This document shows, piece by piece, positions 22,984-44,837 of a stretch of 64,000 nt of DNA. Source of the DNA: Azorinus chamasolen (lineage: Eukaryota > Mollusca > Bivalvia > Cardiida > Solecurtidae); contig OY755240.1 of the NCBI GenBank assembly GCA_963576725.1, positions 30,027,932 through 30,091,931 on the forward strand. The letters run 5' to 3'. Within the stretch, counting starts at the first letter, position 1. Each line of letters begins with the position of its first letter. The translations under genes were made by a program, and so were the position numbers. The notes beneath the pieces were generated by a model. It saw only the letters and a program-made list of their open reading frames with translations. It was not told the origin of the DNA and made no database searches.

Positions 22984-23395
22984 ATGAGAGTCTTGGCTCT
23001 ATTCATAATTGTAGTTTATCAGTTCATAGCTGTAGGTGGCGAGAGGACAGAGATATTTTCTTCCGCGGAGTCATTAAGAAGAACGGTAGAATACGTCAAA
23101 ACATCCGAGTTTTTGCCTTATCTCAAAGATTATGTGTATTCCCGAAAAGTGTTACTCTCCAGATTGTTACAAGTCGTACAAAACATAGAAGACTTGCAGA
23201 GTTTACTGGGTGAAGACGAGTTTACGGTTGAATACCCAACATACGCGTATAAATTCATACGCCGACAAGCATTCATTTTGGAGGACATTCATAGTTACCT
23301 ACATGAAATTCAGAGGACAGCATTTGACCATAAATGGAAGGAAAACTTCATGGAACACTTGCCGGATACTACAGATTTAATTGGATCAGCACAAG
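22984..23395 (+). CDS. P4HA: Prolyl 4-hydroxylase alpha, first coding exon
   Basis: ATG at 22984 follows TAACACAAG. The first ~18 residues (MRVLALFIIVVYQFIAVG) form a signal peptide, expected for an ER-lumen enzyme. The rest matches the P4HA N-terminal domain: EIFSSAESLRRTVEYV, FLPYLKDYV, YAYKFIRRQAF and DTTDLIGSAQG. The donor is CACAAG|GTATTG at 23395/23396, leaving one base (phase 1). Reading on would stop at 23457 after 157 codons. Spliced to any of three downstream exons it restores the family sequence GSAQG-[I/L]TRL-ETY. It is the only first exon of this type in the window. The donor is inferred from frame and family, not RNA. Confidence 0.88.
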
Positions 23396-23502
23396 GTATT
23401 GAAGCGTATCAGCTTGCAAGACGTTTTCTTGTTATTAGGATACATTCAGAGCAATAGATAAAAATGCGTATTCAAATACAATTTACTAAAATCGTTATTT
23501 CT

Positions 23503-23600
23503 GCACCAAACACGATATTGTGATCACTCTTTAGAATCGTCCAGAAGAGACAATTCCAAAGAGCGGTCAAAACATAGGGTTTGGTGTTGAAATAAAGGAG
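23503..23600. mobile_element. Palindromic element family D
   Basis: Arms TGATCACTCTTTAGAATCG and ATTCCAAAGAGCGGTCA around AGAAGAGAC. More mismatches between arms than in other D copies. Confidence 0.75.
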
Positions 23601-23615
23601 CTATATTTGAAATAT

Positions 23616-23850
23616 TTTAACCATTTCCATAGTCTATGTTTATTCTAAATTTCATTTCAATGGCAGAATAGCTAAAAAGAAATATGGAATGTGGAGAATT
23701 GTAGCCATTTCAAAAAGTAAAGAAACAGATCTATCAATTTCCTTTAGCAAACAGAGCAGACCCTCAGACGGCCCCTATAAGAGCCGTCTGATCTGGGTCT
23801 ACTTTGTTTACAAACGCGTGGAAACACGTTTATATGAAGGAAAGGGTTAA
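23616..23850 (-). mobile_element. MITE family A, inverted
   Basis: Starts near TTTAACCATTTCCATAGTC and ends GTTTATATGAAGGAAAGGGTTAA. Hairpin at 23749-23814 (GCAAACAGAGCAGACCCTC / ATCTGGGTCTACTTTGTTT) with a short deletion in the left arm. Confidence 0.75.
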
Positions 23851-24339
23851 TTACGAGTTTTATCTAGGCCTCTGAATTACATACACGCATGTTACACATT
23901 TTAATCACTCATTTAATGCTACCACTTAATTAAGATATGTACATCTTTAAACGCATGCGAATGCTATATGCAGAAGAAACTTAATGTACAGCGGCTTTCT
24001 GCATAAATGTGGACTGCATTAAGCATCGTATATGAAGCGTCTTAAAATACTATTAAACCTCTTTGAGAAGTTTTACTGTATTTGGCATATTTTGGATGGC
24101 ATTCTTCACAATCGTGTGACACTCAATATAGAGTGTTTTCCTGTGGGATAGTCTTATGGTACACACCATGCTTTTGTTTGTATTCTGATTGTAATCGATG
24201 ATTTGTAACGATATGAAATATGCACATCTTCATCACACATGTTGTTGAATTGTTATCAGTTTTGAAATAAGACAAGACATTCTATAATAAACCTATATAT
24301 TACCGACGAGAAAGGAAACCAAGTTACTTTGTACTCTAC

Positions 24340-24930
24340 AGTGACTCGTCTGTATAAATCAGAACAACAGATAAACCGGCGTACTCAAGTACTAAATCGC
24401 CATTTCTCCACCAAACCATATGTTGTGACCACTCTCCAGAATCGTCTCTAAGAGACGATTCTAAAGACTGGTCACAACATATGGTTTTGCGGAGAAATAA
24501 AGAAGTTATTCTTGAAAATGTTTTAATTTACGTATCTTATCTGGACCTCTGTAAAATTAACTGTCTGCTTTCTATGACAAATATGTCCGATCCCAAACAA
24601 TTTTCACTTACTTATCATTCGTTCAAGCTTTTGAGAAACTATTGACTGATTGCCAAATAGCTTTGATCCGAACGTGACACCGATCTACTCGGCGTCTCAT
24701 CTGGATCCAAGTTTTTTTTCAAATGCCAGCTAGGTCACAATTAAATAGACGAATGGTAAAGAAGAAGCAAATGGACTTATTGCTGTCGGATAAACCACAA
24801 CTTAGAGCAATAGACAAAGGGGCGTGTTCAAGTAATAATTTCTGTCACTTCTCCACCAAACGCTATGATGGAGACGACTCTAAAGAGTGTTCACATCCCA
24901 GGGTTTGGTGGAGAAATAAAAGATATTCTT
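24340..24930. mobile_element. Two family D palindromes and a decayed H hairpin
   Basis: D at about 24355-24560, core arms CCATATGTTGTGACCACTC / GACTGGTCACAACATATGG. An H hairpin remnant is at 24660-24722 (TTTGATCCGAACGTGACACC / GGCGTCTCATCTGGATCCAA). A second, shortened D is at 24845-24925 (CTCCACCAAACGCTATGATG ... CACATCCCAGGGTTTGGTG). Confidence 0.75.
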
Positions 24931-25083
24931 AGAAAGGTTTTGAAATACACATCTGATATTGACCTGAATTTATCCTTTGCCCTAACTTCAAGACAGGTTG
25001 GGGGTAGTCAAATGCCTACATGTATATACTAGTTATACTCGATATAATGACCACGTGTTGATTACTCCTACCATAACTATGCT

Positions 25084-25700
25084 TTCACCCTTATCCCTCT
25101 ACCTTAACCCTTATCCGCTACCTTAACTCTTATCCGCTACCTTAACCCTTATCCCTCTACCTTAACCCTTATCCGCTACCTTAACCCTTATCCCTCTACC
25201 TTAACCCTTACCCGCTACCTTAACTCTTGTCCTTCTACCTTAATCCTTACCCGCTACCTTAACACTTATACCGCTACATTAACCCTTACCCGCTACCTTA
25301 ACTCTTATCCCTCTACCTTAACCCTTATCCCTCTACCTTAACCCTTACCCGCTACCTTAACTCTTATCCTTATACCTTAATCCTTACCCGCTACCTTAAC
25401 TCTTATCCCGCTACATTAACACTTACCCGCTACCTTAACTCTTATCCCGCTACATTAACCCTTACCCGTTACCTTAACTCTTATCCTTCTACCTTAATCC
25501 TTACCCGCTACCTTAACACTTATCCCGCTACCTTTACCCTTACCCGTTACCTTAACTCTTATCCCTTTTTCCATCTATCTTAACCCTTATCCCTCTACCT
25601 AAACCCTTACCCGCTCCCTTAACTCTACTATCCAGCTACCTTAACCCTTATCTGCTACCTTAACCACCATTCCTCTACCTTAACTCTTACACTTATCATC
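25084..25700. repeat. 19-20-bp C-rich minisatellite
   Basis: About 30 units of TACCTTAACCCTTATCC-GC or TACCTTAACCCTTATCCCTC. The plus strand is almost free of G, giving strong strand asymmetry and C-triplet runs. Each unit contains TTAACCCTT, the same string as the TTAA-type MITE ends. Confidence 0.9.
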
Positions 25701-25807
25701 ATCTTTCTTCCCTAACACATATCCCTCTACCCCAACCCTCATCATCCTTATCGAACTCTGACTCGCATATGAAAATAGCACTGAGTCCAGATGAGACGCC
25801 GAATTAC

Positions 25808-26055
25808 TTAACCCTTTACTCTATAAATACGCCGTTCTACGCATGTGCAAACATAGTATACCCGGATCAGACGGCTCTTATGGGATCCGTCTGATCAGAG
25901 TCTGCTCTGCTTGTTTGTGATATAATGTAGATATGATGATTCTATAGTTCCTGCATTGGCCAATAAAAAAACATGTTAACAATGTGTCATTATAAAAAAT
26001 AAACGAATTTATATTCATGATGTCACTATTTCATTCATGAATATTCATGGAATAA
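25808..26055 (+). mobile_element. MITE family J
   Basis: TTAACCCTTTACTCTATAAA at the left; hairpin at about 25849-25913 (ATACCCGGATCAGACGGCT / CCGTCTGATCAGAGTCTGC); right end ATGAATATTCATGGAATAAA. The right TTAA is lost. Confidence 0.75.
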
Positions 26056-26087
26056 ATAAGGACATTTCATAATGTCGATGGTTAGTC

Positions 26088-26515
26088 CAGAGCTCCAGAT
26101 AAGGTGCGTACAATTGAACATTTTCAAGAATAACTCCTTTATTTCTCCATCAAATCCTATACTGTGACCACTCTTTTGAATCGCCTCGAAGACAAATTCT
26201 AAAGAGTGGTCACAGTACAGGGTTTGGTGGAGAAATGACGATTTTAACCCTTTCCTCCATAAATACGCATATCTACGCCTCTGTAAAAATCACCTGTTGA
26301 AATTGTGATAAATAGAGCATGTGCTCCTATAGGTGCAAATGCTCTATTTATCACAATGGTTTCAAACCAAAACTCTATAATTTTCCTTTTCTCTTGTTAA
26401 TGCGCTTTTTCGGTAGATTTATTCAAAGTGGTTGGATCTAAAATAGCTTATGAGGGAATGGGTTAATAATTGGGTACGCACCGTTATCTGTAGCCCTGGA
26501 ACCGTTACGTGAACC
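26088..26515. mobile_element. Family D element containing a nested family F
   Basis: Outer D ends: CCAGAGCTCCAGATAAGGTG (26088) and CACCGTTATCTGTAGCCCTGG (about 26511). D palindrome arms at 26139-26232: CTGTGACCACTCTTTTGAATC / TTCTAAAGAGTGGTCACAG. An F element flanked by TTAA at 26244-26247 and 26463-26466 lies in its right flank, with hairpin TAAATAGAGCATGTGCTCC / GGTGCAAATGCTCTATTTA. Confidence 0.8.
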
Positions 26516-27224: not shown

Positions 27225-27370
27225 TAGCTTAATGCAGAACAAAAAGTTATGCAGAAAGCTTCTATAAGAGCTTCTGTATTACTTTTGCCCGGTATTTAGC
27301 CATCACCTGTTGTTACCGACTCCTATGTTAATAAATTACGTGGTTACATTAGCGAGACTTTACAGTACAG
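27225..27370. mobile_element. Family E element
   Basis: GTAGTAGCTTAATGCAG ... TATTTAGCCATCACCTG with core AGAAAGCTTCTATAAGAGCTTCT. The left TIR region CTCGCTAAAACGACCACTAAG is at 27170 and the right GTGGTTACATTAGCGAG at 27341, so the whole element spans roughly 27168-27367. Confidence 0.7.
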
Positions 27371-27571: not shown

Positions 27572-28144
27572 ATAATAAATGTTATTGCATGCTAATATCT
27601 TCGTAAGGGACTTCGGCCTCGACCAATATAACATTTACCAGGTTCAGCGACTGGGATATTCACCCAATAAGTGTATAATAAGTGTATAATATTACAATAG
27701 TTACTACATTTAGCAACATATTAGCCCCCTCCCCCGCCCCCAACCCAATATCAGTGGAAAGTCCTAGCGGACCAATATACCACCTAGCAACGTTGTTGTG
27801 CGCGTTAGCAAAATATTTTTCAAAATTTTCAACATAATCTTGTCACGTCTCAGCTCTTATTCCAAATATTCGTTATAAATATGTCGAACTCGGTCGTAAG
27901 TTAAACATTTAGTATATACCATGGACCATGTAAGACTTTATTTTCATTCTGATTATTTGGAATTCACGGCAGTGACGGACACGTTGTGAAGTCAATTTTG
28001 GACCCATTTACATATATTGTGTTTTCTCCCAACAGTATAACAGATATTATGAGGTGACTTATGCTGAATTTCTGTCTCATTTAAACAATTCTTATATGAT
28101 TTCGAAGGTATGTATTGTTTCGGATGAAACAGTTTATGTTTCAG

Positions 28145-29328: not shown

Positions 29329-29362
29329 GCAGGGATAATGTGTATGGGTCAGACTTTCTCCT

Positions 29363-29608
29363 TTAACCCTTTCTGCGCCAAATTTCTAATTGTCGTCTGC
29401 AATCCAAGTTTGTTAAATCATTCAGTAAAATAAGGAAATGAGATAAATAAATGTAAATATCAAAGGAATATATCACATATATAGAAATAGAGATTGAGAC
29501 AAATAGTGAAGTCCCTGATCAGACGCCGCCTTAAAAAGGCGGCGTCTGATCTGGGACTGCACTATTTGTCGTGGTGCATTTATGCGACTGCGGCGGTGAA
29601 AGGGTTAA
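29363..29608 (+). mobile_element. MITE family I downstream of cassette 1
   Basis: TTAA at 29363-29366 and 29605-29608. Ends CCCTTTCTGCGCCAAATTTC and GCGGCGGTGAAAGGG. Perfect hairpin at 29503-29570: CAAATAGTGAAGTCCCTGAT / ATCTGGGACTGCACTATTTG, apex GCCGCCTTAAAAAGGCGGC. It contains AATAAA near 29446, a possible polyadenylation signal for cassette 1. Confidence 0.85.
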
Positions 29609-29627
29609 AGCATAATAATTGTATGCT

Positions 29628-29725
29628 AGCTTGGAGCCTGGTGAGACGCCGTTACTCGACGTCTCATCTGGATTCAGACTGTTGGCAAAGGTAATCAGTT
29701 TGTCATAGATTCGCCCATTGCAGAT
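29628..29725. repeat. Family H hairpin remnant
   Basis: GCTTGGAGCCTGGTGAGACG and CGTCTCATCTGGATTCAGAC flank CCGTTACTCGA. The same unit occurs at 40718-40795, followed by GGTAATCAGTT and GATTCGCCCATTGCAGATAT, so both belong to a duplicated block. Confidence 0.7.
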
Positions 29726-29794
29726 ATTGCTATGCGTCACTTCCCTGTGACTTCGGCAATTGAAATATTGTTTTTATTCTAATTTATCGCAATA

Positions 29795-30345
29795 ACATTG
29801 CTGCTAGTGTGCATGACAGCATACTAATATACATAGCTAGTTCGCATTGCAGCGTAATTATATACAGTGTATACAAGGCTAACTAGTGCGCTTTGCAGCA
29901 TAATTATATACAGCGAATGCATGGCTAGTGCGCATTGCAGCATATTATACACAGCGAATGCATGCCTAGTGCGCATTGCAGCAGCATTATATAGTATTTA
30001 CATAGATAGTGCGCATTGCAGCATAATTATATAGTGTTTACATGGCTAGTGCGCATTGCAACATACTTATATACAGCTAATAATAACAAATGCGCATTGC
30101 AGGATAATTATATACTGTTTGCATAGCTAGTGCGAATTGCAACATACTTACAAACAATGTTTACATGGCTAGTGCGAATTGAAACATAATTATATAGTGT
30201 TTACATAGCTAGTGCACATTGCGGTATACTTATATACAGCGTATACATAGCTAATGCTCATTGCAGCATAATTTTTACAGCGTGTACATAGGTAATGCCC
30301 ATTGCAGCATATAATATACAGCGTATACTTGGATAAAGCACACAT
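29795..30345. repeat. ~42-bp minisatellite, array 1
   Basis: About 12-13 units built on CTAGTGCGCATTGCAGCATA followed by ATTATATACAGCG. A second array of the same unit lies at 40880-41245. No coding potential beyond trivial ORFs. Confidence 0.85.
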
Positions 30346-30510
30346 CGGCATATTACTTGCCCTTGCACTAGACATATCTGAAAAAGCATCGACTATGATA
30401 TGACAGAGATAGCGGCTTATTTTGTAAATATGACAATGAATAACAGGATAAGAAAGGTTGCTCTTGCACGATTTTTTGGAGGAATTCAGATCAAGATATG
30501 TACATGTATA
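30346..30510. other. Nothing recognised
   Basis: AT-rich sequence between the minisatellite and an E element, with no repeat, hairpin or exon that I can support. Confidence 0.4.
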
Positions 30511-30670
30511 CAGTAGAACCTGTCTTAAGAGGTCATTTATTTATTGAACATAGGCTTAATGCAGGGCAAAAGTAATACAGAAAGCAACTATAGGACTAGC
30601 ATTAAGCTACCACCTGCCTTACATGACCACAATTAGACCTCTTTATATGCCCGCTTAAGACAGGCTCTAC
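30511..30670. mobile_element. Family E element, shortened
   Basis: CAGTAGAACCTGTCTTAAGAG at the left and CTTAAGACAGGCTCTAC at the right. The core GGGCAAAAGTAATACAG joins ACTAGCATTAAGCTACC with most of the right arm missing. Confidence 0.75.
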
Positions 30671-30689
30671 ATATATCTATATCTATATA

Positions 30690-30930
30690 TGGTCATGTTG
30701 CCGTCGCGGTTGTTGTAGATTAGTCGGAGAGGGGATACGTTTATTTACACTGTTTGTCTTTTAGGGTGGGGATGGAATAAGTGTGAGGTTGGGCGCCCAT
30801 AAACCGGTTTAACCCCCAGTGACTTTTGTCACTGACCGTTCCAAGGCGGTACTTCCATCTTCCCCCTATTGCATGTTTGTTTTGTCTTTGTACGTCTCTT
30901 GTTGTTTTTATAGTTATGTACATTTGCTGT
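30690..30930 (+). mobile_element. Solo 3' tail of the RT element, copy 2
   Basis: 30728-30910 matches 3890-4080: GGGGATACGTTTATTTACA, AGTGTGAGGTTGGGCG, CATAAACCGGTTTAACCCC, CTGACCGTTCCAAGGCGGTA. No RT lies upstream, so this is a heavily 5'-truncated retrocopy. Confidence 0.7.
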
Positions 30931-31021
30931 TTCCTTGTGTTGCTGTTCGGGCGACTGTTTGTTCTGTATGTGGTGTTTCCTGCATGACTCATTTTTGTAC
31001 TTTTATTACTACAATTAAGTC

Positions 31022-31600
31022 TCGGTAATATGACGCATTTGCAAACAGAAGACCCAGATCAGATGGCTCCTAGAGAAGCAGTCTAATCAGGGTCTGCTCT
31101 GTTTGCTAATGGAATCTGATATATCTAATTCTTTAGTTTCTAAAATGGCTACAGTGTTTCACCCTCCTTATTTCATTAGAACTATTTTGTCCATGAACTT
31201 TCAGTAGGTATTGACATTTAGACTAAACATAGAACAGGGAAAGGGTTAAGACAGGTTGTAGGTTCACGAGGAACACATGCAGAAAGCTCCTTCGGTATTA
31301 CATGTAGTATTGTCCTGTATTAAGCAGTCATTTGATTTTGCAGACTAATGTGTTAACCCTTTCCCTGTTCTATGTTTGTCTCAATTTCAATACCTACTGA
31401 ATATTCATGGCCAAAATAGTTATAATCAAATATGGAAGGTGGGACATTGCATCCATTTTAGAAAGTAAAGAAACAGATCTTCAAATTCTATTACCAAACA
31501 GAGCAGACCCTGATCAGACGGCTCCTTTAGGAGCCGTCTGATCTGGGTCTACTCTGTTTGCAAATGCGTGAAAACACGTTTATATGAGGGAATGGGTTAA
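31022..31600. mobile_element. Two opposed family A MITEs around an E core
   Basis: A forward (hairpin 31037-31106, ends AACAGGGAAAGGGTTAAG at 31248). An E core fragment (GACAGGTTGTAGGTTCACGA to about 31345) follows. A inverted runs 31353-31600 with TTAACCCTTTCCCTGTTCTA at the left and GTTTATATGAGGGAATGGGTTAA at the right. Its hairpin is near perfect: CAGACCCTGATCAGACGGC / GCCGTCTGATCTGGGTCT. Confidence 0.8.
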
Positions 31601-31645
31601 TAGAGTATGTGGTCGCATTAGCGAGATTTCACTTTATAAAAGTAC

Positions 31646-32925
31646 AGTGCATAGTTATTAGTCTACTTTCAGTCCAAACTCCAAAGGACCGCTCTTCCGA
31701 CTGTACATTTACTCCCTTGGTCAATGCACAGGGGTCTGGACCGCTTCATTGGGGTCTATATGTACTATATAATAACAAGGGTTCCAACTAGCAGAACGGA
31801 TATCCGTGTACCACGAGTACAAATATGACTGTAACTCTTACAATTTAAATGATAATTTCGTAATTCTTTCGGCTGTTGAAAGCCAATATATTTATCTATC
31901 AAACAAATATAATCTTATAACGGTAACTTATGAACAAGTATAAATCCAACAATGATTTTCTCAAAATTTCACGTGTTTTAGAGTCATTGACAAACGTTCG
32001 TTCACTCCGGTTTCACTATATCACAGCAATAACCGGGCATTTGCAGTGAGTCAATAAAACGAATCAATTCTAACACCCACCTCCAATTATTTAGTCCCCA
32101 GCATCAAAAGAATGATGTAAAACTAGCGAGTTTTGTCAGTTTGCTTCAAATCGTCGAGGAAGGAGCCATTGTACGTGACGTCACGGATTTTCCAACTTTT
32201 TCTTCGCTCATCCAATGAAATGGCTCCATTCAAATTTGTTGCAAAATGGCAGCATCCGAAATAGAAACATAACGACAGACGGAAAGGCCGCTGTTGCTAG
32301 TTGCTTATTTATTAAGAGGACAAAACAAATGGAGATTGGTGATATAATTGGGTTGTTTCATTGAACCACGCCCTCTTTTGAACTGAATCTCGCCAGGTTA
32401 TGGCTGTGATATAGTGAAACCGGAGTGAACGAACGTTTGTCAATGACCCAGAAAACACGTGAAAGTTTGAGAAAATCGTTGTTGGATTGATAATTGCGAG
32501 TAAGTTACCGTGAGAAGATTATATTTATTTGATAGCAAAATATATTGGCTTTCAATAGCCGAAAGAATTACAAAATTATCATTGAAAGTGCAAGAGTTAC
32601 ATTCATATTTGTACTTGTGGTACACGGATGTCCGTTCTGCTAGTTGGAACCCTTGTTATCATATAGTACATATAGACCCCAATGAAGCGGTCCAGATCCC
32701 TGTGTGTCAATGAGTCATTCGCCTACAATATTGAGCAATGCTTACATATGGCGCAATCATGCAGCCGCAGTACCGGCGAGTGACCCTCACAGGTACTCAT
32801 TTTAAACCTTGGGTATAGAGGAGGTGCCGGTGGGAGACATAGAAAAGCGTTTCTGAAATTTCCGGGAGGGGCCGGGATTTGAACTCCGGACTTCCGGACC
32901 ACTAGACCACCGCACACCACTGTAC
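31646..32925 (-). mobile_element. tRNA-derived SINE, copy 2, split by a hAT-like element
   Basis: The 3' part of the SINE body is at 31646-31726 (ACTTTCAGTCC, CCGACTGTACATTTACTCCC). The 5' part and tRNA head are at 32705-32925 (GCCTACAATATTGAGCAATG, TACCGGCGAGTGACCCTCAC, GGGCCGGGATTTGAACTCC). The anticodon arm of the head is deleted. Comparison with copy 1 (12187-12483) shows the interruption point. Confidence 0.8.
31727..32704. mobile_element. 978-bp hAT-like element with ~305-bp TIRs
   Basis: Left TIR 31727-32034 begins CACAGGGGTCTGGACCGC. The right TIR 32396-32704 ends GCGGTCCAGATCCCTGTG. The arms match for about 300 bp, for example TTCACTCCGGTTTCACTATA versus TATAGTGAAACCGGAGTGAA. The flanks GGTCAATG and TGTCAATG agree at 7 of 8 bases, fitting the 8-bp duplication of hAT transposons. 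The ~360-bp centre has no transposase; an ATG at 32254 opens only MAASEIET. Confidence 0.8.
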
Positions 32926-33085
32926 TGCTTAGGTTGAATTTTGTTGAAATGTTTTAGTTTTTTTGTTGCCATTCACGCTTATGTTGTTGAACATGTTTAC
33001 TTTATGCATTATGCTGCATTGATTAAAAATCAACACGAATGATATACCCGTATATTATATTTTACCAACGTAGTTAACAGAGACC
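32926..33085. other. Nothing recognised
   Basis: AT-rich sequence between the SINE head and a family D element. No supportable feature. Confidence 0.4.
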
Positions 33086-33545
33086 AGATAAGATACGTAA
33101 ATTAAAATATGGATAATAATAGCTCCTTTATTTCTCCACCAAACGCTATGGCGGAACCACTCTTTAGAATCATCTCCAAGAGACGATTCTAAAGAGTGAT
33201 CACAGCGTAGGATTTGGTGGAGAAATGGAGAGATTAGTATTTGAGTACGCCCCTGGATCTATAGTCTGATAACGTTCATTGAATAATCATGCATGACTGT
33301 AGTGACACTGTAGTGGCGCTTTTCAAACATTCTTAGGTCCAGAGCAACAGATGAATGATCGTATTAAAAAACAAAAAGCGTAATTTCTCAACAAAGCCCT
33401 ACACTGTGACCACTCTTTAGAATGGTCTCTTCGAGACGATTCTAAAGAGTGGTCACGGTGTAGGGTTTTGGGGAAATAAAGATTCCATACATGTACTTTA
33501 AATGGTTTTTATTTCACGCACCATATCTGAACCTTGATTGATCTT
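33075..33545. mobile_element. Two family D palindromic elements
   Basis: First: core 33134-33228 (CACCAAACGCTATGGCGGAA ... GATCACAGCGTAGGATTTGG). Second: core 33385-33478 (CTACACTGTGACCACTCTT ... AAGAGTGGTCACGGTGTAGGG). Both have ends resembling AGACCAGATAAGATACGTAA and CACCATATCTGAACC. Confidence 0.8.
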
Positions 33546-34052
33546 CTCTTATCGCCTTTCAATTTCATTTTATAAACTTGTGCAACTCTTACCCCGCTGT
33601 GAAAAAATGATATCGGCTTAAATGTGGATCTGACTCAATTATGACTACTTCCGATTCGATCAAGCTTTTGAAAAGCTATGGGACAAGTTTCATTGCACAA
33701 TCTTTTAACTCGTTGCTCAATGGATATTCATGTGAGAAATAAAGACATCTTGGATTTAATTTTTTTTATAATGGTACATGAGCACGGGGAAGTTTTGGCC
33801 ATGGCTGACCTTGTAAAATCACATCTATCTTACTTCATAAGTAAGCAGAGGAGATCCTGATAAGACGGCTCTTTCAGGACCCTGATAAGACGACGAGTTA
33901 CTCGGTGTTTCATCAGGATCCAAGCTGTTTGCAAATGAGAGTCAGGCCGTGGTTAGCTGACCGAAGATTCGTTCTATAAATTATTTGTATTTTTTAATGC
34001 ATGGCAACGGTTCCATAAAGAATAATTTACTGATCGTGAAGATACTATGAGA

Positions 34053-34289
34053 TTAACCCTTTCGGGGCTAAATTTCTAATTGTCATCTACAAACCAATTT
34101 TATTAAACCATTCGGTAAAATAAGGAAATGAGATAAATAAATGCAAATTTCAAAGGAATAAAGCACAGATATCAAAATAGAGATTGGGACAAAAAGTGAA
34201 GTCCCTGATCAGATTCAAGGCGGCGTCTGATCTGGGACTGCACTATTTGTCGTGGTGCATTTATACGACATTGGCGGTGAAAGGGTTAA
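34053..34289 (+). mobile_element. MITE family I
   Basis: TTAA at both ends; CCCTTTCGGGGCTAAATTTC and TTGGCGGTGAAAGGG. Hairpin shortened at the apex (GTCCCTGATCAGATTCAAGG then CGGCGTCTGATCTGGGAC). Confidence 0.8.
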
Positions 34290-34479
34290 ATGTCCGAAGT
34301 ATGAGGAACTCTGTTGGTGTATATAGATATGTTCGTTTATACGGAAACACATGTTGGTAATTGACCCTGTTGACCCTAAATATTGGGATACCATTATCTC
34401 CACATTCCACAGGGTTGTAAAGCTGAATGATTGAATCTGGAACTATTTTCGGTAACCTAAATTTAGACTGAAATTGTAG

Positions 34480-34770
34480 CAAATATTGCAGACCGAGATC
34501 AAACTGCTCCCTTACGAGCAGTTTGATCTGGGTCTACACTATTTGATTAACCCATTTGAGCCCAGTGTCCATTAAAATGAAAACAGGCAAACAGTGTAGA
34601 CCCAGATTAAATATCTAATAAAAGATCCCTCTGATCAGGGTCTGCACTGTTTGCTGAAGTCATCGATGTCAATGGATTATGCTAGCAACTGTTTTGTTTG
34701 ATGTACTCCCGAACCATGAACAATGGAAGGGTTTTAAAATAAGACCAGGACATGAGAATAAATGGGTTAA
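34480..34770. mobile_element. Two hairpin modules and a TTAA-type MITE
   Basis: A C-type hairpin is at 34483-34547 (GAGATCAAACTGCTCCC / GAGCAGTTTGATCTGGG). TTAACCCATTTGAGCCCAG (34549) starts a TTAA element ending CATGAGAATAAATGGGTTAA (34770). Its hairpin is GCAAACAGTGTAGACCCAG / CTGATCAGGGTCTGCACTGT. Confidence 0.7.
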
Positions 34771-34974
34771 CTCTTCCCTCCATAAATACGCCTTTCTACG
34801 CCTCTGTAAAAGTCACTTTTTGAAAACATTGTGATAAATAGAGCATTTGCTATATTTATCACAACGGTTTCAGAACTACAAAACTCTAAACATGTCCTTA
34901 TCTGTATTTAATGCTCCTTTTCGGTAGATTTATTCAAAGAGGTCAGATCTAAAAATAGCCTATGAGGGAATGGG
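34771..34974 (-). mobile_element. MITE family F with demonstrable TTAA duplication
   Basis: Flanked by TTAA at 34767-34770 and 34975-34978. The paralogous empty site is at 42309-42312 (ACTGGGTTAAGTTTGTCTG), with a single TTAA. The element is 204 bp, with ends CTCTTCCCTCCATAAATACG and GCCTATGAGGGAATGGG. Confidence 0.92.
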
Positions 34975-35297
34975 TTAAGTCTGTCTGTCCGAATACTGTG
35001 GGTAATGAGAATATTCAATTTCATGTTTAGTCCACAGTATAGTACGATTTAGCGTACTTTAAACGTCGCTATTACACGAACCAGGTCCATAACTTACCTA
35101 TATGTATTCGGACTGCCTTCTGCGCCCTCCGTAAAGCTGAATAAATCATTTTTGCACCATTCTTATAACTTTAAAATTATACAGACATAGTAGCAAATAG
35201 TGAAGACCCTGATCAAAATGCTTCTTCAGGAGTAGTTTAATCTTAAGCTGCAAAAAATACTCGATACAGTAAATTACGTTTCATTATCGATTGTTAA

Positions 35298-35531
35298 CCC
35301 TTCTCTTGCTGAATTTTAAAATACATTTCTCCTTCGTTACTCATGCCCTGTTGTATACTTACATATATCTTCACTGTGTACAAGTATTTCGCTGTGAAAT
35401 CACTGCTGTGGAGTGCACTGGTTGCACAATCAACTTGTAAATAGTGCAGACCCTGATGAGTGCAGGAGCTGTCTCATCAGGGTCTGCACTATTTACTGAT
35501 AGGTGTATTGACGTGAACAGCAAGCGAAGGG
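35298..35531 (+). mobile_element. MITE family G with demonstrable TTAA duplication
   Basis: Flanked by TTAA at 35294-35297 and 35532-35535. The paralogous empty site is at 42563-42566 (TATCGATTGTTAAGGCAGG). The element is 234 bp and closely matches 12592-12841, with part of the hairpin left arm missing. Confidence 0.92.
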
Positions 35532-35776
35532 TTAAGACAGGCTGAAGATTGATGCATGATGCAAGACCCTACTCTGTTTGCAAAGGCATGAAATAGCGTT
35601 TATATGAGGGAAATTTTAAATAGCATAGATGTCACATGATTCTTTAGTTTCTGCCATGACCAAAAATTCCATAGTTCATAAGCCATAACAAAGATTCAGT
35701 TGATAAAATATTCACGATCCAATATTCCTTACATAAATATTCGTGGAGTAAAGGGATACAACGATTTATGTTTCAG

Positions 35777-36948
35777 GGCTGACCCGACTTATGGACACCT
35801 ATCGCTTTGTATACGGTGATTTTATCGACGGAAACCTTAACGGGCACAAGGCTAAACCTTTAACAGCGAAGGAGATTCTTGACATTGGAAAGACAGTGGC
35901 AGGTGCTAGAGAGAAATACAAATACAGTGAATACAAGGCTATTTTCAGATGGACGCATCTTGCAAGACTGAAGTTGCAGGATGAGGACAACAAAACTGTG
36001 GAAGAATATTACATCCACGAGCTAGAAGTAAACACATACACAAAAGTCGGTTGTCTGTGTTCGAGCGAAGTTGAAAAATTGCTAGAGCACTCTTCTTTTT
36101 CGAGAGATATACAGGTGTCAAGAGATGCACGTTGTAAAGATGCCCAATTCAGTAGATGTAAACCCAGGTTGAAACGCGAGTACGATATCAAGGTTACACA
36201 AAACTTTCAGGAACTGTGTCGAGGAGATGCAACTGACGCAGATGTAGGAAATGCAACAATCAAACCACTGCTGTGTCACCTCATTGACAACGGAGATCCA
36301 AGATTGATCCTACAGCCAGTTAAATTGGAGGAAATGCGCACGATTAAGCCATACATTGCAACCCTTCATGACATACTTCGTGATAGAGAAATCTCTTACT
36401 TTAAAGAAAACGCCATGCCCAAGTTAGCCAGAGGGAAAACGCTTTCTACTTCAGGATTAAAAACGGCAGAAAATAAAGTATCTCAACAGGTTTTTATTCC
36501 GATAAAACATTACAAGAAGCCTATTTTGAACCTTAGAAACAGATTAGCAGCCGCAACTAAGTTGAATGTTGAAGGGTTTGAGAAAATACAAGTGGCAAAT
36601 TATGCTGCAGGTGGGTTTTACGATTCCCATCTTGACGCAAATTTTCTACTATCTGCTAAACCTGAAACTTATCTTGGAAAGGATAACCGCGTCATCAGTA
36701 TTGTTATGTACCTAAGCGACGTCGAGGAAGGCGGTGCAACAGCATTTCCGTATGTGGGCGTTGCAGTTAAGCCTAAGAAAGGAAATGCAGTTCTTTTCTA
36801 CAACCTTCATAGGAACCTCAAAATGAATCGTGACTCGCAACATGGGGGCTGTCCTATTCTTACGGGTGAAAAATGGATCGCCACTCAGTGGGTCAGAACA
36901 TTTCACCAGGAGTTCCACCATCAGTGTGCATTGGATAGTATGGAATGA
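35777..36948 (+). CDS. P4HA: Prolyl 4-hydroxylase alpha, terminal exon cassette 2
   Basis: Acceptor GATTTATGTTTCAG|GG at 35776/35777, phase 1, stop at 36946-36948. With exon 1 it predicts 527 residues. The internal ATG at 35791 is unlikely to be a true start because it would drop the signal peptide and N-terminal domain. The catalytic core is VANYAAGGFYDSHLD (His422, Asp424), GGATAFPYVGVAVKP, distal His493 in QHGGC and Lys503 in GEKW. The reading frame is intact. A MITE remnant with TAAATATTCGTGGAGTAAAG lies within 30 bp upstream of the acceptor. Nearest relative is cassette 3. It could be an alternative last exon of the gene starting at 22984 or an orphan copy. Confidence 0.85.
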
Positions 36949-37149
36949 ACACGGATGTAAAGAAGTTCTCCCTTCTCATGCTGAATAATTATATATAATG
37001 TCTGCCCATTCTCTTAGTTGCTGATTTTTACGGACTGTTGATTCGTTCAAGCCTTTGAGAAGCTACTTACCGAGTGATCATGACAAGACGCCACTTGATG
37101 CTTGCAAATGACAGACAGGTCGCGTTTAGCATAAAAAACGTGTTTTAGC

Positions 37150-37335
37150 ACAGAGTTATAGATACAAGTACGTACCAAACTACTAAAATCGTCATTTCTC
37201 CACCAACCCCTATACTGCTACCACTCTTTAGAATCGTCGACGATTCTAAAGAGTGGTAGCAGTATAGGGGTTGGTGGAGAAATAAAGGAGTTGTTCTTGT
37301 AAATGTTTAAATTTATCTTATCTGGACCATGTTAG
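37150..37335. mobile_element. Family D element downstream of cassette 2
   Basis: A perfect palindrome at 37200-37278, with arms meeting at GAATCGTCGACGATTC. Both arms carry the variant CTATACTGCTACCACTC / GAGTGGTAGCAGTATAG. GAGAAATAAAGGAG at its right edge supplies an AATAAA that could serve cassette 2. Confidence 0.85.
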
Positions 37336-37636
37336 CTGTTTCCTTCTTGTAATAAATTTACCGCAACAAACCGCAGACACATTTTTGAATTATGCACATT
37401 TATACGTATAGCAGACACATATTAGTAGAATAAAACTATGAATGGAAATTAGAATAAAACAGAATAGTTCGGCCAAACCGATAATAGTAAAAAGACTCGT
37501 AAACTCATCATGACACGCTCATATTAGAATACAATGAAATGCTATTTAACATTGGGTCACCTTGCAACAGAAGCTGTTAAATTCTATTTTTATTGAATAG
37601 GAAGTACGATATATCAAGAAAGGAAGATCTACGTTT

Positions 37637-37876
37637 TTAACCCTTTACCTAACAGCTACTGTTTTTCACTCCGTTTGCAAACATAGTAGACCCAGATTAG
37701 ACGGTGCCTAAGGGTGTCATCTGGTCAATACCTGCTCAGTTAACATATAAAATGATATAAGCCTGCTTCTGCGATTTCCCCAAAAAATCTGGTGCTAATG
37801 TGCTATTATAAATATTAAGCTGATTGATTTTCATAAAATAATTATTTTTCATGAATATCTAACAGGTAAAGGGTTA
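37637..37876 (+). mobile_element. MITE family J
   Basis: TTAA at 37637-37640 and 37873-37876. Hairpin arms GTAGACCCAGATTAGACGG / CATCTGGTCAATACCTGCTC; right end TCATGAATATCTAACAGG. The paralogue is at 45500-45736. Confidence 0.75.
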
Positions 37877-38385
37877 ATTTCAAAGTAGTGTTTTTTTCTT
37901 TCTTGTTGGTTGCTGTAGACCTACACTTTGTTCAAGGGCAAAAAATGAACCACTACAATGGCATTTGAATAACGCATGTAATGCAGAAATACAATAAATA
38001 AATATATATTTTTCAACTTCTATTAGTTATTTTTTAAGGGAATATTTTGCTTTGACAAAAACAGAAGATTCAGATCTATATCATGTCAAAAGCAGACAAA
38101 AATAGAGCCGCCGTCTGAGCTGGTGTTTAAAATGAAGGAAAGGGTTAAAAGTAAACATGAATAAGTGGTTCTGACTCTATTTGATTACTTTAAACTGGAC
38201 TGACATAGTATAAAATAGTGCTGACATTTATCAAACAACCCTCCCAGGAGCAGTCTGATCTGGGTCTGCCCAGATATGAGCCTACTCTTGTTACTTATTG
38301 GTTAATGTAGCTCTGATCCTACAGTTTCTGTCTTGACGAAAACCTCTCTTGTTAATAAGCAAATATCAAATAGGTTCGGTTAATT

Positions 38386-38468: not shown

Positions 38469-38499
<31 letters not shown>

Positions 38500-39566: not shown

Positions 39567-39717
39567 TGATATTCATAAAATCACTACATTTGTATTTTGT
39601 GCATGAATTTTAATAAAATGTAAACAGTTGAAATTTAAACAGTGGAAAACTTTTATAGCGGTGACACTTTTAGAATTACAAAAATGTTACCTATATCAGA
39701 TACTACTCCTACTATTT

Positions 39718-39910: not shown

Positions 39911-40879
39911 TTACTTGGATTGCATGTGTGTATATGTGTGCAACAACCTTTATATTTGAATATAAGAATTCATTGAATATAAGATGATTTTATTTTAGGT
40001 TAAAAAATAGTAATGACCTTTGGCTGACATAAAACACTGCGTCTGCAATTTGGAATGCGAAATCGTTTGACATCTAGCGATATTTGATATTTAATGTTTT
40101 ACGGAAATACAACATGCAGTTGAGTGCCCTCAAATAAAACTGGCCTACGTGTCGGCTATCAGTATCTCTGTTCGAGTTCTTGATCGCCTGTGCAAACAGT
40201 GTCTTTTTATTATTTCTGGCTCACTATGCATTTACTTGATGAATATACGTACATATAAGAAAAAAAAATGATATTAATATTAATGAAGTGGATTTTTATA
40301 ATCTAATGAGACAGGATGTTGTGCAGGGGTAGAAACTGTAAATCAGTACATTATTTATAAAGCAGACAGAGTTGACCCTGATGAGACGGTTGAGTAAAGA
40401 GGATAAAACCAGTTCGTGTCAGAGCAGCATTTGAACTACCCTTTACTTAGCCCAATCCCTTCCCTTCGAGACTATTTTAGACCCAATCTCTTTGAAAAAA
40501 GGTATCGGTCTTCAGGGTCTTCACTGTTTGCTGAACTCATCGATGCCAAATGCTCTTACCAGCAAATAGTTTGTTTGATCCGGGGTTACTCTATTTGCAA
40601 AGGCATGCCAATACGTTTTTATTAGGTAAAACATTGGATAACTATCCAACATCTAACATTGTCGTCTGCTGTATTGGTCAGAACAGACCTTTTTTCTCTA
40701 AAACGTAAGCAGTGTATGATAGTTCGGAGCCTGGTGAGAAGCTGTTACTCGACGTGTCGTTTGGATTCAGACTGTTTGCAAAGGTAATCAGTTAATTACA
40801 GATTCGCCCATTGCAGATATTTCTATGCGTCACTTCCCTGCGACTTCGGTACTGAAAGACTGTCTCGATTATAATTCAC
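39911..40879. repeat. Chimeric MITE fragments, no gene
   Basis: 39942-40210 is shared with 56160-56430. After that come J/K pieces (TTGATGAATATACGTACATA), an F piece (GAGACTATTTTAGACCCAATC, 40468) and hairpin scraps joined without intact element ends. The H-type hairpin at 40718-40780 corresponds to 29628-29725. Confidence 0.5.
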
Positions 40880-41245
40880 CACAATAACATTGCAGCTAGT
40901 GCGCATGGCAACATACTTATATTCACTGTTTACATAGGTAGTGCGCATTGCAGCATAATTATATACAGTGTATACAAGGCTAACTAGTGCGCTTTGCAGC
41001 ATAATTATATACAGTGTATACATGGTTAGTGCGCATTGCAGCATAATTATATACAGCGAATACATGGCAAGTGCGCATTGCAGCACATTTATATACAGCG
41101 TTTACAAGGTAGTGCGCATTGCACCATAATTATATACAGCGAATGCATGGCTAGTGTGCATTGCAGAATATTATATACAGCGAATGCATAGCTAGTGCGC
41201 ATTGCAGCATAATTATATAGTGTTTACATAGATAGTACGCATTGC
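40880..41245. repeat. ~42-bp minisatellite, array 2
   Basis: About eight units of CTAGTGCGCATTGCAGCATA plus ATTATATACAGCG, the same unit as 29795-30345. Array length differs between the two copies of the block. Confidence 0.85.
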
Positions 41246-41706
41246 TTTTTAGAAATCATCGGACAAGTTTCATTGCATAATATTTTAACTCGTTGTTCCA
41301 TGAATATTCATGTGAGAATAAAAAGCATCATGGATTTTAACTAAATTATTTTTATAATGGTACATGAACACGGGGAAGTTTTGGCCATAGGAGACCTTGT
41401 ATAATCATATCTATCTTACTTCATAAGTAAACAGATCAGATCCTGATCAGACGGTTCTTACAGGAGCCTTCTGATATGGGTCTAAACTGTTTGCAAAAGC
41501 ATAGAAATGTTTTTATGCAGCAAATAGTTAATAAACTATTGATCGAGTGTCAAACAGATTGGTCCCTGATGAAACGTCGAGTTACTAATGCGTGTCAGGC
41601 CGTGGTTAGCTGGATGAAGATTCATTCTATAAATTACTTGCATTGTTCAATGCGTGGCAACAGTTCTATAAAGAAATATAATTTACTGATCGTGAAGGTA
41701 CGATGA

Positions 41707-41939
41707 GCTGAACCATTTCGGTGCTAACTTTCTAATTGTCGTCTGCAAACCAATTTTGTTAAACCATTCGGTAAAATAAAGAAATGAGATAAATAAATGC
41801 AAATTTCAAAGGAATAAAGCACAGATATAAAAATAGAGATTGAGACAAAAAGTGAAGTCCCTGATCAGACGCCGTCTTGATCTGGGACTGCACTATTTGT
41901 AGTGGTGCATTCATACGACATTGGCGGTGAAAGGGTTAA
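41707..41939 (+). mobile_element. MITE family I
   Basis: Paralogue of 34053-34289. Left end decayed (CTGAACCATTTCGGTGC), right end TTGGCGGTGAAAGGGTTAA. Hairpin apex deleted (GTCCCTGATCAGACGCC then GTCTTGATCTGGGAC). Confidence 0.75.
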
Positions 41940-42522
41940 ATATCCGAAGTATGAGGAACTTTGCCAGTGTATATAGAACCTTTTGTTTATACGGAAACAC
42001 ATGCTGATCATTGACCCTGTTGACCGTAAATATTGGGACACCATTATCTCCACATTCCACAGGGTTGTAAAGCTGAATAATTGAATCTGGAACTAGTTTC
42101 GGTAACTTTAATTTAGACTGACATTGTAGCAAACAGTGTAGACCCAGATTAAATATCTAATAAAAGATCCCTCTGATCAGGGTCTGCACTGTTTACTGAA
42201 GCCATCGATGTCAATGGATTATACTAGCAAATGTTTTGTTCCATGTCCTCCCGCACCATGAACAATGGATGAGTATCAAAATAAGATCAGGACATGAGAA
42301 TAACTGGGTTAAGTTTGTCTGTCCGAATACTGTGGGCAATGAGAATATTCAATTAAATGTTTTGTCCACAATATGTATAGTACCCTCTGTAAAGCTGAAA
42401 AATTCAATTTTGCACTATTCTTATAACTATAAATTATACATACATAGTAGCAAAAAGTGAAGACCCTGATCAAAATGCTTTTTCAGGAGTAGTTAAGCTT
42501 AAGCTATAGAAAAACATCGATA

Positions 42523-42982
42523 CAGTAAAACCGAACACTCAAATGAGTTTCATTATCGATTGTTAAGGCAGGTTGAAGCTTGATGCAGGATGAAAGGCAT
42601 GCAGAAAGCTCCTTTTGACAAAGTGATGCCTTTTCAGCAGACGATTGATTAATGCAGGGTGAAAGTCATACCGAAAGCTCCTTGAGGAACTTTCTGCATG
42701 ACATTCATCTTGCATTAAACTGCTACCTGTTTTGAGACTGTTTGTTTTATAATTCGAACTATTTGGGTTTTACTGTACATTAAAACCTCTCTATAACGGC
42801 CACTAAATTGTGTTAATTAGTTGGTATATTAGTGCAGGTGGCTGCTTAAAGTAAGGTGAAAGTAAAATAGAACGCTCCTATAGGAGCGTTTTGTTTTACT
42901 TTCACCTTGCTTAAAGCAGACATCTGCCTTTAACACAAAATACTTGATGTAATTTAGTGTCCGTTATAGAGAGGTTTTACTG
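42523..42982. mobile_element. Adjacent family E and E2 elements
   Basis: E: CAGTAAAACCGAACACTC (42523) to ATTTGGGTTTTACTG (42775); it contains two partial cores and the empty TTAA site at 42563. E2: TAAAACCTCTCTATAACGGCC (42781) to CGTTATAGAGAGGTTTTACTG (42982), with apex CGCTCCTATAGGAGCG at 42873-42888. The two are separated by only a few bases. Confidence 0.8.
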
Positions 42983-43208
42983 AATACGACTTAGTTTGTT
43001 TATCGGAATACTTAGGGCAATTAGGGCATAAAGATCAGAGGAACCATTTGTATCCTAGATGCGCTTTTGAACGCCTTAAACCTTTCCCTACTAACCATTC
43101 GTGTAATAAATGATAAGAGCATGCATATTTATTAGCTGAAGTTTTATAATGGAATGTGTACACAGGATGGGTTTGTACAGGCGACCGATTTAGAATTAGA
43201 TTTATATA

Positions 43209-43413
43209 CAGTAGAAACCCGCTAATGCGACCACTTAATGGATTAACATGGGTGTCTTTATAAGCTGGTGGTTGCTTAATGCAGGGCAAAAGTAATGCAG
43301 AAAGCTCCTCTAGGAGCTTTCTACATTACTTTTGTCCTGCATTAAGCTACCACCTGCATCTAACACCCATAATTATACCTGTTTTAGGTGGTCGCATTAG
43401 CGGGGTGTTACTG
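43209..43413. mobile_element. Family E element, intact
   Basis: CAGTAGAAACCCGCTAATGCG at the left and CGCATTAGCGGGGTGTTACTG at the right, flanked by TA. Long palindrome TGGTTGCTTAATGCAGGGC ... GTCCTGCATTAAGCTACCA with apex AGCTCCTCTAGGAGCT. Confidence 0.85.
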
Positions 43414-43665
43414 TAATTCCATATAAACAAACAGAGCAGATCTTGGTTAGACGGCTCCTACTCTGGAAAGGCATGAAAAAGCGTTTACGTGAGGGAAAGT
43501 TTAAATATCATAGATGGTATATGATTCATTAGTTTCTGCCATGGCCAAAAAATCCATATAGTTTATATGCCGTAACAATGATTAATCTGATTAAACGTTC
43601 CTGACGCCATTATTTTTTACATAAATATTCGTGCAGTAAAAGGATTACAACGATTTATGTTTCAG

Positions 43666-44837
43666 GACTGACCCGACTTATGGACACCTATCGGTTTGTA
43701 TACGGCGATTTTCTCGACGGAAACCTTATCGGACACAAGGCTAAACCTTTAACAGCGAAGGAGATCCTTGACATTGGAAAGACAGTGGCAGAAGCTATGG
43801 CGAAATACACCTACAGTGAATACAAGGCTATTTTCAGATGGACGCATCTTGCAAGGCTGAAGTTGCAGGATGCGGACAACAAAACTGTTGAAGAAAATTA
43901 CATCCATGAGCTAGAACTAAACACATACACAAAGGTTGGTTGTCTGTGTTCGAGCGAGGTTGGAAAACTGGTAGAACACCCATCTTTTTCGAGAGATCTA
44001 CAGATGTCAAGAAACGCACGTTGTAAAGATGCCCAATTCAGTAAATGCAAACCCAGGTTGAAACGCGAGTACGATATCAAAATTACACAAAAATTTCAGG
44101 GGTTGTGTCGAGGCGATGAAGCTGATGTAGATGCTGGAAATTCAACATTCAAACCACTGCTGTGTCACCTCATTGACAACGGGGATCCAAGATTGGTCCT
44201 ACAGCCAGTTAAATTGGAGGAAGTGCGCGCGATTAAGCCATACATTGCAATCCTTCATGACATACTTCGTGATAGAGAAATATCTTACTTTAAAGAAAAC
44301 GCCATGCCCAAGTTAGCCAGAGGGAGAACACTTTCTACTGCAGGATTTAAAACGAGAGAAACTAAGGTATCTCAACAGGTTTTTATTCCGATAAAATATT
44401 ACGAGAAACCTATTTTGAACCTTAGAAACAGATTGGCAGCCGTTACTAAGTTAAATGTTGAAGGGTTTGAGAAAATACAAGTGGCGAATTATGCTGCAGG
44501 TGGATATTACAATTCCCATAGTGACTCAAATTTTCTTCTATCTGCTAAACCTGAAACTTATCTTGGAAAGGATAACCGCGTCATCAGTATTGTTATGTAC
44601 CTAAGCGACGTCGAGGAAGGTGGGGCAACAGCATTTCCGTTTGTGGGCGTTGCAGTTAAGCCAAAGAAAGGAAATGCAGTTCTTTTCTACAACCTTCATA
44701 GGAACTGCAAAATGAATCGAGACTCGCAACATGGGGGTTGTCCTATTCTTACGGGCGAAAAGTGGATCGCCACTCAGTGGGTCAGAACATTTCACCAGGA
44801 GTTCCACCATCAGTGTGCATTGGATAGTATGGAATGA
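43666..44837 (+). CDS. P4HA: Prolyl 4-hydroxylase alpha, terminal exon cassette 3
   Basis: Acceptor GATTTATGTTTCAG|GA at 43665/43666, phase 1, stop at 44835-44837; 527 residues when joined to exon 1. The catalytic motif reads VANYAAGGYYNSHSD: His422 and Asp424 are kept although the middle residue is Ser. GGATAFPFVGVAVKP, the distal His493 and Lys503 in GEKW are present. It is very similar to cassette 2 through the whole exon, with substitutions spread along the substrate-binding region. It lacks its own signal peptide, so a functional product would need exon 1 about 20.3 kb upstream. As with cassette 2, an orphan duplicate is possible. Confidence 0.85.

What the first reader, a model, noticed from the sequence alone, without database searches (positions are those of the whole stretch)
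22984..44837. One P4HA first exon followed by three interchangeable catalytic terminal exons
Seen: a single signal-peptide/N-domain exon (22984-23395) ends in phase 1. Three downstream exons (28145, 35777, 43666) all start after TTTATGTTTCAG in phase 1, run intact to a stop and keep the His-x-Asp...His...Lys core. Each junction restores the family sequence and gives 527-531 residues. No other exon 1 lies between them. Inference: mutually exclusive alternative last exons that swap substrate-binding plus catalytic domains behind one promoter and signal peptide. Alternatively, cassettes 2 and 3 are orphan copies. Insect P4HA genes are known to expand in tandem, but there each copy is a complete gene. 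Such a switch could tune hydroxylation of collagen-like or byssal/shell proteins.
Basis: partly seen in the sequence, partly recalled or inferred. Interest (0 to 1): 0.9.

Follow-up and report, generated by a model that had tools for sequence, protein, structure and literature searches.

The report
One enzyme start, three swappable ends
An animal gene for a collagen-type proline-modifying enzyme has one shared first exon followed by three complete, selection-kept versions of its catalytic part, so it probably makes three different enzymes by choosing which end to splice on.

Summary
One exon (22984-23395: hydrophobic start plus most of P4Ha_N, phase-1 donor) precedes three intact, intronless cassettes (28145-29328, 35777-36948, 43666-44837), each behind TTTATGTTTCAG in the matching phase. 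Spliced in silico they give 531, 527 and 527 aa with the H-x-D...H...K core. Each junction completes the P4Ha_N domain (27.0 bits for exon 1 alone; 46.1, 49.4 and 46.6 spliced).

New evidence favours a shared first exon. (1) No second first exon was found in the window or 50 kb on either side. The whole-genome searches returned four cassettes of this subfamily and three first-exon-like ORFs: this one, one in an ordinary two-exon gene on C2, and an orphan ~406 kb away, opposite strand, donor lost. (2) Cassette 3 arose by duplication of a segment starting 278 bp after cassette 1's stop, so exon 1 was not copied. (3) Cassettes 2 and 3 have since stayed under purifying selection (dN/dS 0.30, 95% 0.19-0.46), with no coding indels.

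Best reading: alternative last exons swapping substrate-binding and catalytic parts behind one N-terminus. Similar designs are known in fly genes; my searches listed none for P4HA. No transcript was seen; unrecognised private first exons and trans-splicing remain open.

The parts
22984..23395 (+). Shared first coding exon: hydrophobic (signal-peptide-like) start plus most of the P4Ha_N domain; phase-1 donor AAG|GTATTG
   Evidence: P4Ha_N 27.0 bits alone; donor score
28145..29328 (+). Terminal cassette 1: end of N-domain, peptide-binding region, linker, 2OG/Fe catalytic domain, stop
35777..36948 (+). Terminal cassette 2 (60% aa to cassette 1, 89% to cassette 3)
43666..44837 (+). Terminal cassette 3
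28133..28144 (+). 3' splice site of cassette 1, TTTATGTTTCAG
35765..35776 (+). 3' splice site of cassette 2, identical 12-mer
43654..43665 (+). 3' splice site of cassette 3, identical 12-mer
29606..38251 (+). One unit of the tandem duplication: starts 278 bp after the cassette-1 stop, contains cassette 2; no first exon found in it (about 30140-33664 has no counterpart in the other unit)
   Evidence: ten non-coding blocks in the same order
40699..46979 (+). The other unit, contains cassette 3
29446..29451 (+). AATAAA, the only AATAAA/ATTAAA in the 2.5 kb after cassette 1; cassettes 2 and 3 have 9 and 7 such sites (first at 37281 and 45130)

Best explanation
This is one collagen-type prolyl 4-hydroxylase alpha-subunit gene with three alternative last exons. 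Transcription starts upstream of exon 1. The phase-1 donor of exon 1 is joined to the 3' splice site of cassette 1, 2 or 3, and the transcript ends at that cassette's own poly(A) site. Each mRNA encodes the same signal peptide and dimerisation region with a different peptide-binding plus 2OG/Fe(II) catalytic part (about 74% of the protein). Shown: the exons, phases, splice-site sequences, domain completion, duplication geometry and selection. Inferred: that the 23395-35777 and 23395-43666 junctions are made, that this occurs in cis, and that the isoforms differ in substrate preference.
For: (a) Each cassette completes P4Ha_N across the junction: 27.0 bits for exon 1 alone, 31.5 with read-through into the intron, 46.1/49.4/46.6 when spliced. 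The P4HA1 dimerisation/peptide-binding structure 2yq8 aligns continuously across residue 137/138 (query 38-214) for isoforms 1 and 3, the two searched. (b) Ten non-coding blocks in the same order link the unit with cassette 2 (29606-38251) to the unit with cassette 3 (40699-46979); exon 1 lies outside. (c) Cassettes 2 vs 3: dN/dS 0.297 (bootstrap 0.19-0.46). Per lineage 0.26 (15N:16S, p 2.3e-4) and 0.25 (8N:9S, p 0.0045), with 29 differing codons not polarised. There are 0 coding indels, against 17 in the 3' flank (15 not multiples of 3), 4 just upstream and 2 further upstream; a neutral simulation gives 4.6 stops per lineage and P(no stop) 0.011. (d) The 12-nt acceptor is identical in all three although dS between cassette 1 and the others is about 1. 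(e) A single-cassette paralogue on C2 has the same two-exon, phase-1 design, so the junction is the subfamily's normal one. (f) Genome-wide, 4 full-length cassettes of this subfamily (among 7 matches from 30 scored candidates) stand against 3 first-exon-like ORFs with E < 1e-11 (among 4 matches from 16 candidates). (g) Eight cysteines are invariant in the four cassettes, which fits an ER enzyme needing exon 1's signal peptide (inference).
Against: No transcript of any junction was available. A query with isoform 3 returned 11 proteins from 7407 candidates, none above 39% identity and the best-scoring at 30%. The control query with the ordinary C2 gene returned nothing above 51%, so this says nothing either way. 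The exon-1 donor is weaker than that of the C2 paralogue (4.27 vs 9.51 bits). No low-copy competing-RNA docking site shared by all cassettes was seen (first 12 matches per flank). Transcripts reaching cassettes 2 or 3 must read past the AATAAA of cassette 1. A private first exon without homology cannot be excluded.
Confidence: 0.7

Rival explanations
1. Cassettes 2 and 3 are separate genes with their own, unrecognised first exons: a short unrelated signal exon or a non-coding exon with translation from an internal Met (Met6 counted from the junction glycine, in both cassettes 2 and 3).
For: Homology searches cannot see an unrelated exon. Both cassettes have a Met at the same place near their start. 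A conserved acceptor fits any phase-1 or non-coding donor exon.
Against: With the thresholds used (ORF of 25 or more codons, exon of 60 nt or more, hydropathy peak over 2.0, donor over 4 bits) only one signal-like ATG ORF with a phase-1 donor lies between the cassettes (33720-33857). It is repeat-like and broken in the cassette-3 copy. Without exon 1 the product would lack a signal peptide and most of P4Ha_N, yet each cassette still matches the last 20-odd positions of P4Ha_N and keeps eight invariant cysteines.
Confidence: 0.15
2. Trans-splicing as at Drosophila mod(mdg4): exon 1 comes from one pre-mRNA and cassettes 2 and 3 from their own promoters.
For: The anatomy (one donor region, several downstream acceptor exons) is like that of mod(mdg4) (passages of PMC12692577, including its abstract).
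Against: Nothing in the sequence calls for it. The cassettes are on the same strand and end within about 21.4 kb of exon 1, which cis-splicing can handle.
Confidence: 0.07
3. Cassettes 2 and 3 are orphan duplicates, dead or dying.
For: They lack a recognisable first exon of their own, and partial copies are common in tandem duplications (general knowledge).
Against: Purifying selection on both lineages, no coding indels or stops, and a 1.1% chance of staying stop-free per lineage if neutral.
Confidence: 0.05
4. Assembly artefact: private first exons were lost or the copies misplaced in the assembly.
For: Repeat-rich region. About 3.5 kb of the cassette-2 unit (30140-33664) has no counterpart in the cassette-3 unit.
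Against: Copies differ by 11-18% in most aligned non-coding flanks and sit in a 98.6 Mb contig with no N in the window. A first exon would have had to be lost from both units.
Confidence: 0.03

Closest known systems
Vertebrate collagen prolyl 4-hydroxylase alpha subunits P4HA1/P4HA2
   Same: Same domain order (N/dimerisation, peptide-binding, linker, catalytic). P4HA1 and P4HA2 have mutually exclusive alternative transcripts (passages of PMC12525012).
   Different: There, small internal exons alternate (recalled: P4HA1 exons 9/10). Here the alternatives are whole last exons carrying about 74% of the protein.
Drosophila pip (pipe) and PGRP-LC
   Same: Homologous 3' units chosen mutually exclusively (passages of PMC9013439). 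That pip joins a shared start to alternative catalytic exons is recalled.
   Different: Unrelated proteins. Competing RNA structures are reported there; none common to all cassettes was found here.
Drosophila mod(mdg4) and lola
   Same: Common 5' exons with alternative 3' terminal exons (passages).
   Different: They are trans-spliced; that the swapped parts are not catalytic domains is recalled. Trans-splicing is untested here.
Drosophila P4H-alpha expansion
   Same: Same family, many copies: 26 genes annotated with a term for collagen P4H activity (passages of PMC12340787). It includes CG34041, which has N-domains but no catalytic domain, like the orphan ORF on C6.
   Different: There the copies are counted as separate genes; here the copied unit lacks the first exon.
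C2 paralogue in the same genome (72346685-72351637)
   Same: Two exons, phase-1 junction, intronless terminal cassette, 38-39% aa to the window's cassettes.
   Different: One cassette only in the 50 kb fetched.

Membership tests
Collagen prolyl 4-hydroxylase alpha subunit (C-P4H alpha) | P4Ha_N (PF08336) domain | tested here: met
   46.1, 49.4 and 46.6 bits in isoforms 1-3, cut-off 25.3
Collagen prolyl 4-hydroxylase alpha subunit (C-P4H alpha) | 2OG-Fe(II) catalytic domain with H-x-D...H...K | tested here: met
   PF13640 52.4, 55.7 and 54.7 bits, cut-off 27; invariant H289, D291, H360, K370; best PDB match is the P4HA2 chain 7zsc for isoforms 1 and 3 (isoform 2 not searched)
Collagen prolyl 4-hydroxylase alpha subunit (C-P4H alpha) | Peptide-substrate-binding (TPR) domain | tested here: inconclusive
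   P4HA1 chain 2yq8 aligns over query 38-214, E 5.1e-6 (isoform 1) and 1.4e-8 (isoform 3). No peptide-binding or TPR Pfam domain reached the threshold
Collagen prolyl 4-hydroxylase alpha subunit (C-P4H alpha) | N-terminal signal peptide | tested here: inconclusive
   Hydrophobic start, peak 9-residue hydropathy 3.76; no signal-peptide predictor was available
Collagen prolyl 4-hydroxylase alpha subunit (C-P4H alpha) | alpha2beta2 assembly with PDI and activity on collagen-like prolines | not testable with these tools
   needs biochemistry
Cluster of homologous alternative exons | Neighbouring exons of similar length, same phase, homologous, conserved splice sites | tested here: met
   1184/1172/1172 nt including stop, same phase, 60-89% aa, identical 12-nt acceptor; criteria as in the title and passages of PMC3228551
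Cluster of homologous alternative exons | Transcripts each containing exactly one of the exons | not testable with these tools
   no RNA data available
Trans-spliced locus of the mod(mdg4) kind | Separate pre-mRNAs joined | not testable with these tools
   no RNA data

The most novel reading that the evidence does not exclude
One promoter and one dimerising N-terminus serve three catalytic cassettes, so the cell can build mixed alpha2beta2 tetramers carrying two different substrate-binding and catalytic parts. That would be combinatorial prolyl hydroxylation, which humans, whose alpha subunits are reported not to mix, do not have.
Probability: 0.3. Interest if true: 0.78.

Novelty: new variant of a known kind. 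Interest (0 to 1): 0.6.

Why it matters
In the review whose passages I read, the three human alpha subunits do not mix in one tetramer (PMC12525012), and flies have diversified the family as many separate genes (PMC12340787). A gene that changes only the substrate-binding and catalytic part behind a fixed dimerisation part would allow isoform choice by 3'-end or splice selection, and perhaps mixed tetramers. It also shows a clear birth route: a tandem duplication that begins downstream of the first exon yields a usable terminal exon at once. The claim is directly testable with ordinary RNA data.

Tried and rejected
Upstream relic cassette at 21440-21766 (weak tblastn, E 0.22): I read the stretch and saw no open cassette; rejected.

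Candidate private first exon 33720-33857: repeat-like (further matches at 5891, 10908 and 11166 in the window) and frame-broken in the cassette-3 copy; rejected.

Orphan first-exon-like ORF at C6:29644234-29644671(-) as the lost partner of cassette 2: rejected as such. It is ~406 kb away on the opposite strand, only 28.5% identical to the window's exon 1 where, judging by the 60% of the cassettes, roughly 50-60% would be expected, and its homologous donor reads GA instead of GT.

Transcript proof through protein databases: isoform 3 (7407 candidates), the cassette alignment (8000-candidate limit reached) and the C2 gene as control (same limit) gave no close match, so absence is uninformative.

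Competing-RNA docking/selector search (at most 12 matches listed per flank): the stronger complementary stretches are high-copy repeats. One low-copy stretch (23994-24025) pairs with sites above cassettes 1 and 3 but not 2; a few short low-copy matches touch single flanks. Inconclusive.

Literature: the top listings of searches (6 to 20 titles shown each, out of up to 1,009 papers) showed no report of alternative last exons in a P4HA gene. Beyond listings I saw passages of seven papers; none was read whole. The human P4HA1 exon 9/10 detail, the catalytic nature of pip exons, and that 7zsc and 2yq8 are human proteins are recalled.
Full report
OBSERVATION. The window is G000:C6:30027932-30091931 in a 1.72 Gb, 137-contig genome that the tools leave unnamed. 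The first exon (22984-23395) ends with one spare base before the donor AAG|GTATTG. Three downstream open cassettes start after the same 12-mer TTTATGTTTCAG at 28145, 35777 and 43666. Spliced in silico they give 531, 527 and 527 aa without internal stops.

DOMAINS. Isoform 1 has P4Ha_N (46.1 bits) and 2OG-FeII_Oxy_3 (52.4 bits). Isoforms 2 and 3 have the same two domains (49.4/55.7 and 46.6/54.7). Exon 1 alone reaches only 27.0 bits, and 31.5 when read on into the intron, so each of the three cassettes supplies the missing end of the domain. The P4HA1 chain 2yq8 aligns across the junction, and the P4HA2 chain 7zsc is the best structural match, for isoforms 1 and 3, the two that were searched. 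The Fe/2OG residues and eight cysteines are invariant in the three cassettes and the C2 paralogue.

NO SECOND FIRST EXON FOUND. tblastn with loose settings gave E 1.9 as the best exon-1 hits in the window after the exon itself. A profile of isoform 1 and ten database homologues (one of which lacks P4Ha_N), run over all six-frame stop-to-stop ORFs of 15 or more codons, gave 5.5 bits as the next hit. Fifty kb on either side of the window gave neither a further cassette nor a first exon at E 0.05. Genome-wide, cassette 1 as query returned 7 matches at E 1e-5 from 30 scored candidates. Four are full length: the three here and one on C2. The other three are weaker matches on C16 (27%, one stop inside), C2 and C10 (39% over about 55 residues each). 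Exon 1 as query returned 4 matches at E 1 from 16 candidates: itself, C2, an orphan on C6, and one at E 0.24 with two stops. The family search with PF08336 gave 8 hits; the window's own exon 1 is not among them, presumably because alone it scores little, so that count is a lower bound.

THE SUBFAMILY'S NORMAL FORM. The C2 gene (72346685-72347093 joined to 72350451-72351637; 531 aa) has the same phase-1 junction and an intronless terminal exon. Two database proteins of unnamed origin (P0019, P0020) read like such terminal cassettes, preceded by about 24 and 3 residues that are probably intron read-through. They group with the C2 cassette (support 96 and 92), not with the window's three. So the two-exon design probably predates the multiplication of cassettes.

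HOW CASSETTE 3 (OR 2) AROSE. Similarity between cassettes 2 and 3 does not stop at the exon. Ten non-coding blocks in the same order link 29606-38251 with 40699-46979 (68-92% identity; neighbouring blocks overlap slightly at one place in the copy). Seven of the ten blocks also have shorter or weaker repeat matches elsewhere in the 264 kb searched, but the full-length partner of each block is in the other unit. The unit begins 278 bp after the stop of cassette 1 and so does not include exon 1. About 3.5 kb (30140-33664) has no counterpart in the other unit and contains no first-exon homology. The newer cassette was therefore most simply born without a first exon and behind an existing one. How the cassette-2/3 lineage arose from cassette 1 is older (60% aa), and I found no such chain between their flanks.

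SELECTION. Cassettes 2 vs 3: dS 0.181, dN 0.054, ratio 0.297 (bootstrap 0.19-0.46). Cassette 1 against 2 and 3: ratios 0.267 and 0.290, dS 1.04 and 0.945. Polarised by cassette 1, both lineages are constrained (15N:16S and 8N:9S; 29 differing codons could not be polarised). Coding identity is 92.4% with no indels, against 85.4-89.0% in the three aligned flanks, with 4, 17 and 2 indels. A neutral simulation at 0.09 substitutions per site gives 4.6 stops on average and 1.1% stop-free outcomes.

SPLICE SIGNALS. The acceptor 12-mer is preserved between cassettes 1 and 2 although synonymous sites are near saturation. The exon-1 donor is mediocre (4.27 bits; 6.4% of all GTs in the window do as well), while the C2 gene's is 9.51 (0.3%); the scoring tables for donors and acceptors were typed from general knowledge. 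Cassette 1 has one AATAAA, at 29446; cassettes 2 and 3 have 9 and 7 AATAAA/ATTAAA sites in 2.5 kb. A search for competing RNA pairings between intron 1 and cassette flanks was swamped by high-copy repeats and gave no site common to all cassettes.

MECHANISM. Most likely a single pre-mRNA starting before exon 1 is spliced to one of three 3' terminal exons, each with its own 3' end. Leaving cassette 1 out requires reading past its poly(A) signal, so choice may be made by 3'-end processing or by splice-site competition; which of these is inferred, not shown. The products share the ER signal and the dimerisation part but differ in the peptide-binding region (57% identical between 1 and 2), the linker (48%) and the catalytic part (67%; my domain borders). 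That pattern fits altered substrate choice with conserved chemistry, but it is also the usual pattern of uneven constraint.

KNOWN RELATIVES. Mutually exclusive transcripts of P4HA1 and P4HA2 are documented (PMC12525012 passages). Homologous alternative 3' units are known in Drosophila pip and PGRP-LC (PMC9013439 passages) and human capping protein beta, and, trans-spliced, alternative terminal exons in mod(mdg4) and lola (PMC3228551 and PMC12692577 passages). [quoted passage not shown] The search listings named in Tried and rejected showed no P4HA case. I therefore call it a new variant of a known kind.

LIMITS. No RNA data, no named species, no genome of a relative. The cassette-2 genome search did not complete. 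The sequence cannot exclude unrelated private first exons.

Noticed in passing
G000:C6:29644234-29644671 (-), loci L005/L038: Intact first-exon-like ORF (145 aa, P4Ha_N 35.3 bits) ending in a stop just past the homologous donor, which reads GA not GT; no cassette found in the 50 kb fetched around it. Possibly a stand-alone N-domain protein like Drosophila CG34041, or a relic.
   Followed up: partly
G000:C2:72346685-72351637, loci L019/L032: Ordinary two-exon, one-cassette paralogue of the same subfamily.
   Followed up: yes
G000:C16:22121179-22124612 (-), loci L003/L033: Probably a separate P4HA-like gene: a P4Ha_N match and, about 2.5 kb on, a 27%-identical catalytic match with one in-frame TGA (intron or defect not resolved).
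   Followed up: no
48150-54420: About 2 kb unit repeated in tandem roughly three times at 97.5-98.2% identity.
   Followed up: no
18349-20607 (-) and 2852-3670 (+): Open reading frames that look like reverse transcriptases of mobile elements (labels recalled, not searched).
   Followed up: no
about 23495-23597, 24380-24540, 26095-26240, 27370-27566, 37151-37328, 42769-42982 and elsewhere: Short, partly palindromic repeats with dozens of matches in the 264 kb searched; copies lie on both sides of the cassettes and could pair in RNA.
   Followed up: partly
29828-30328 and 40894-41245: Related tandem arrays of about 41 bp; they lie inside the two duplicated units.
   Followed up: yes
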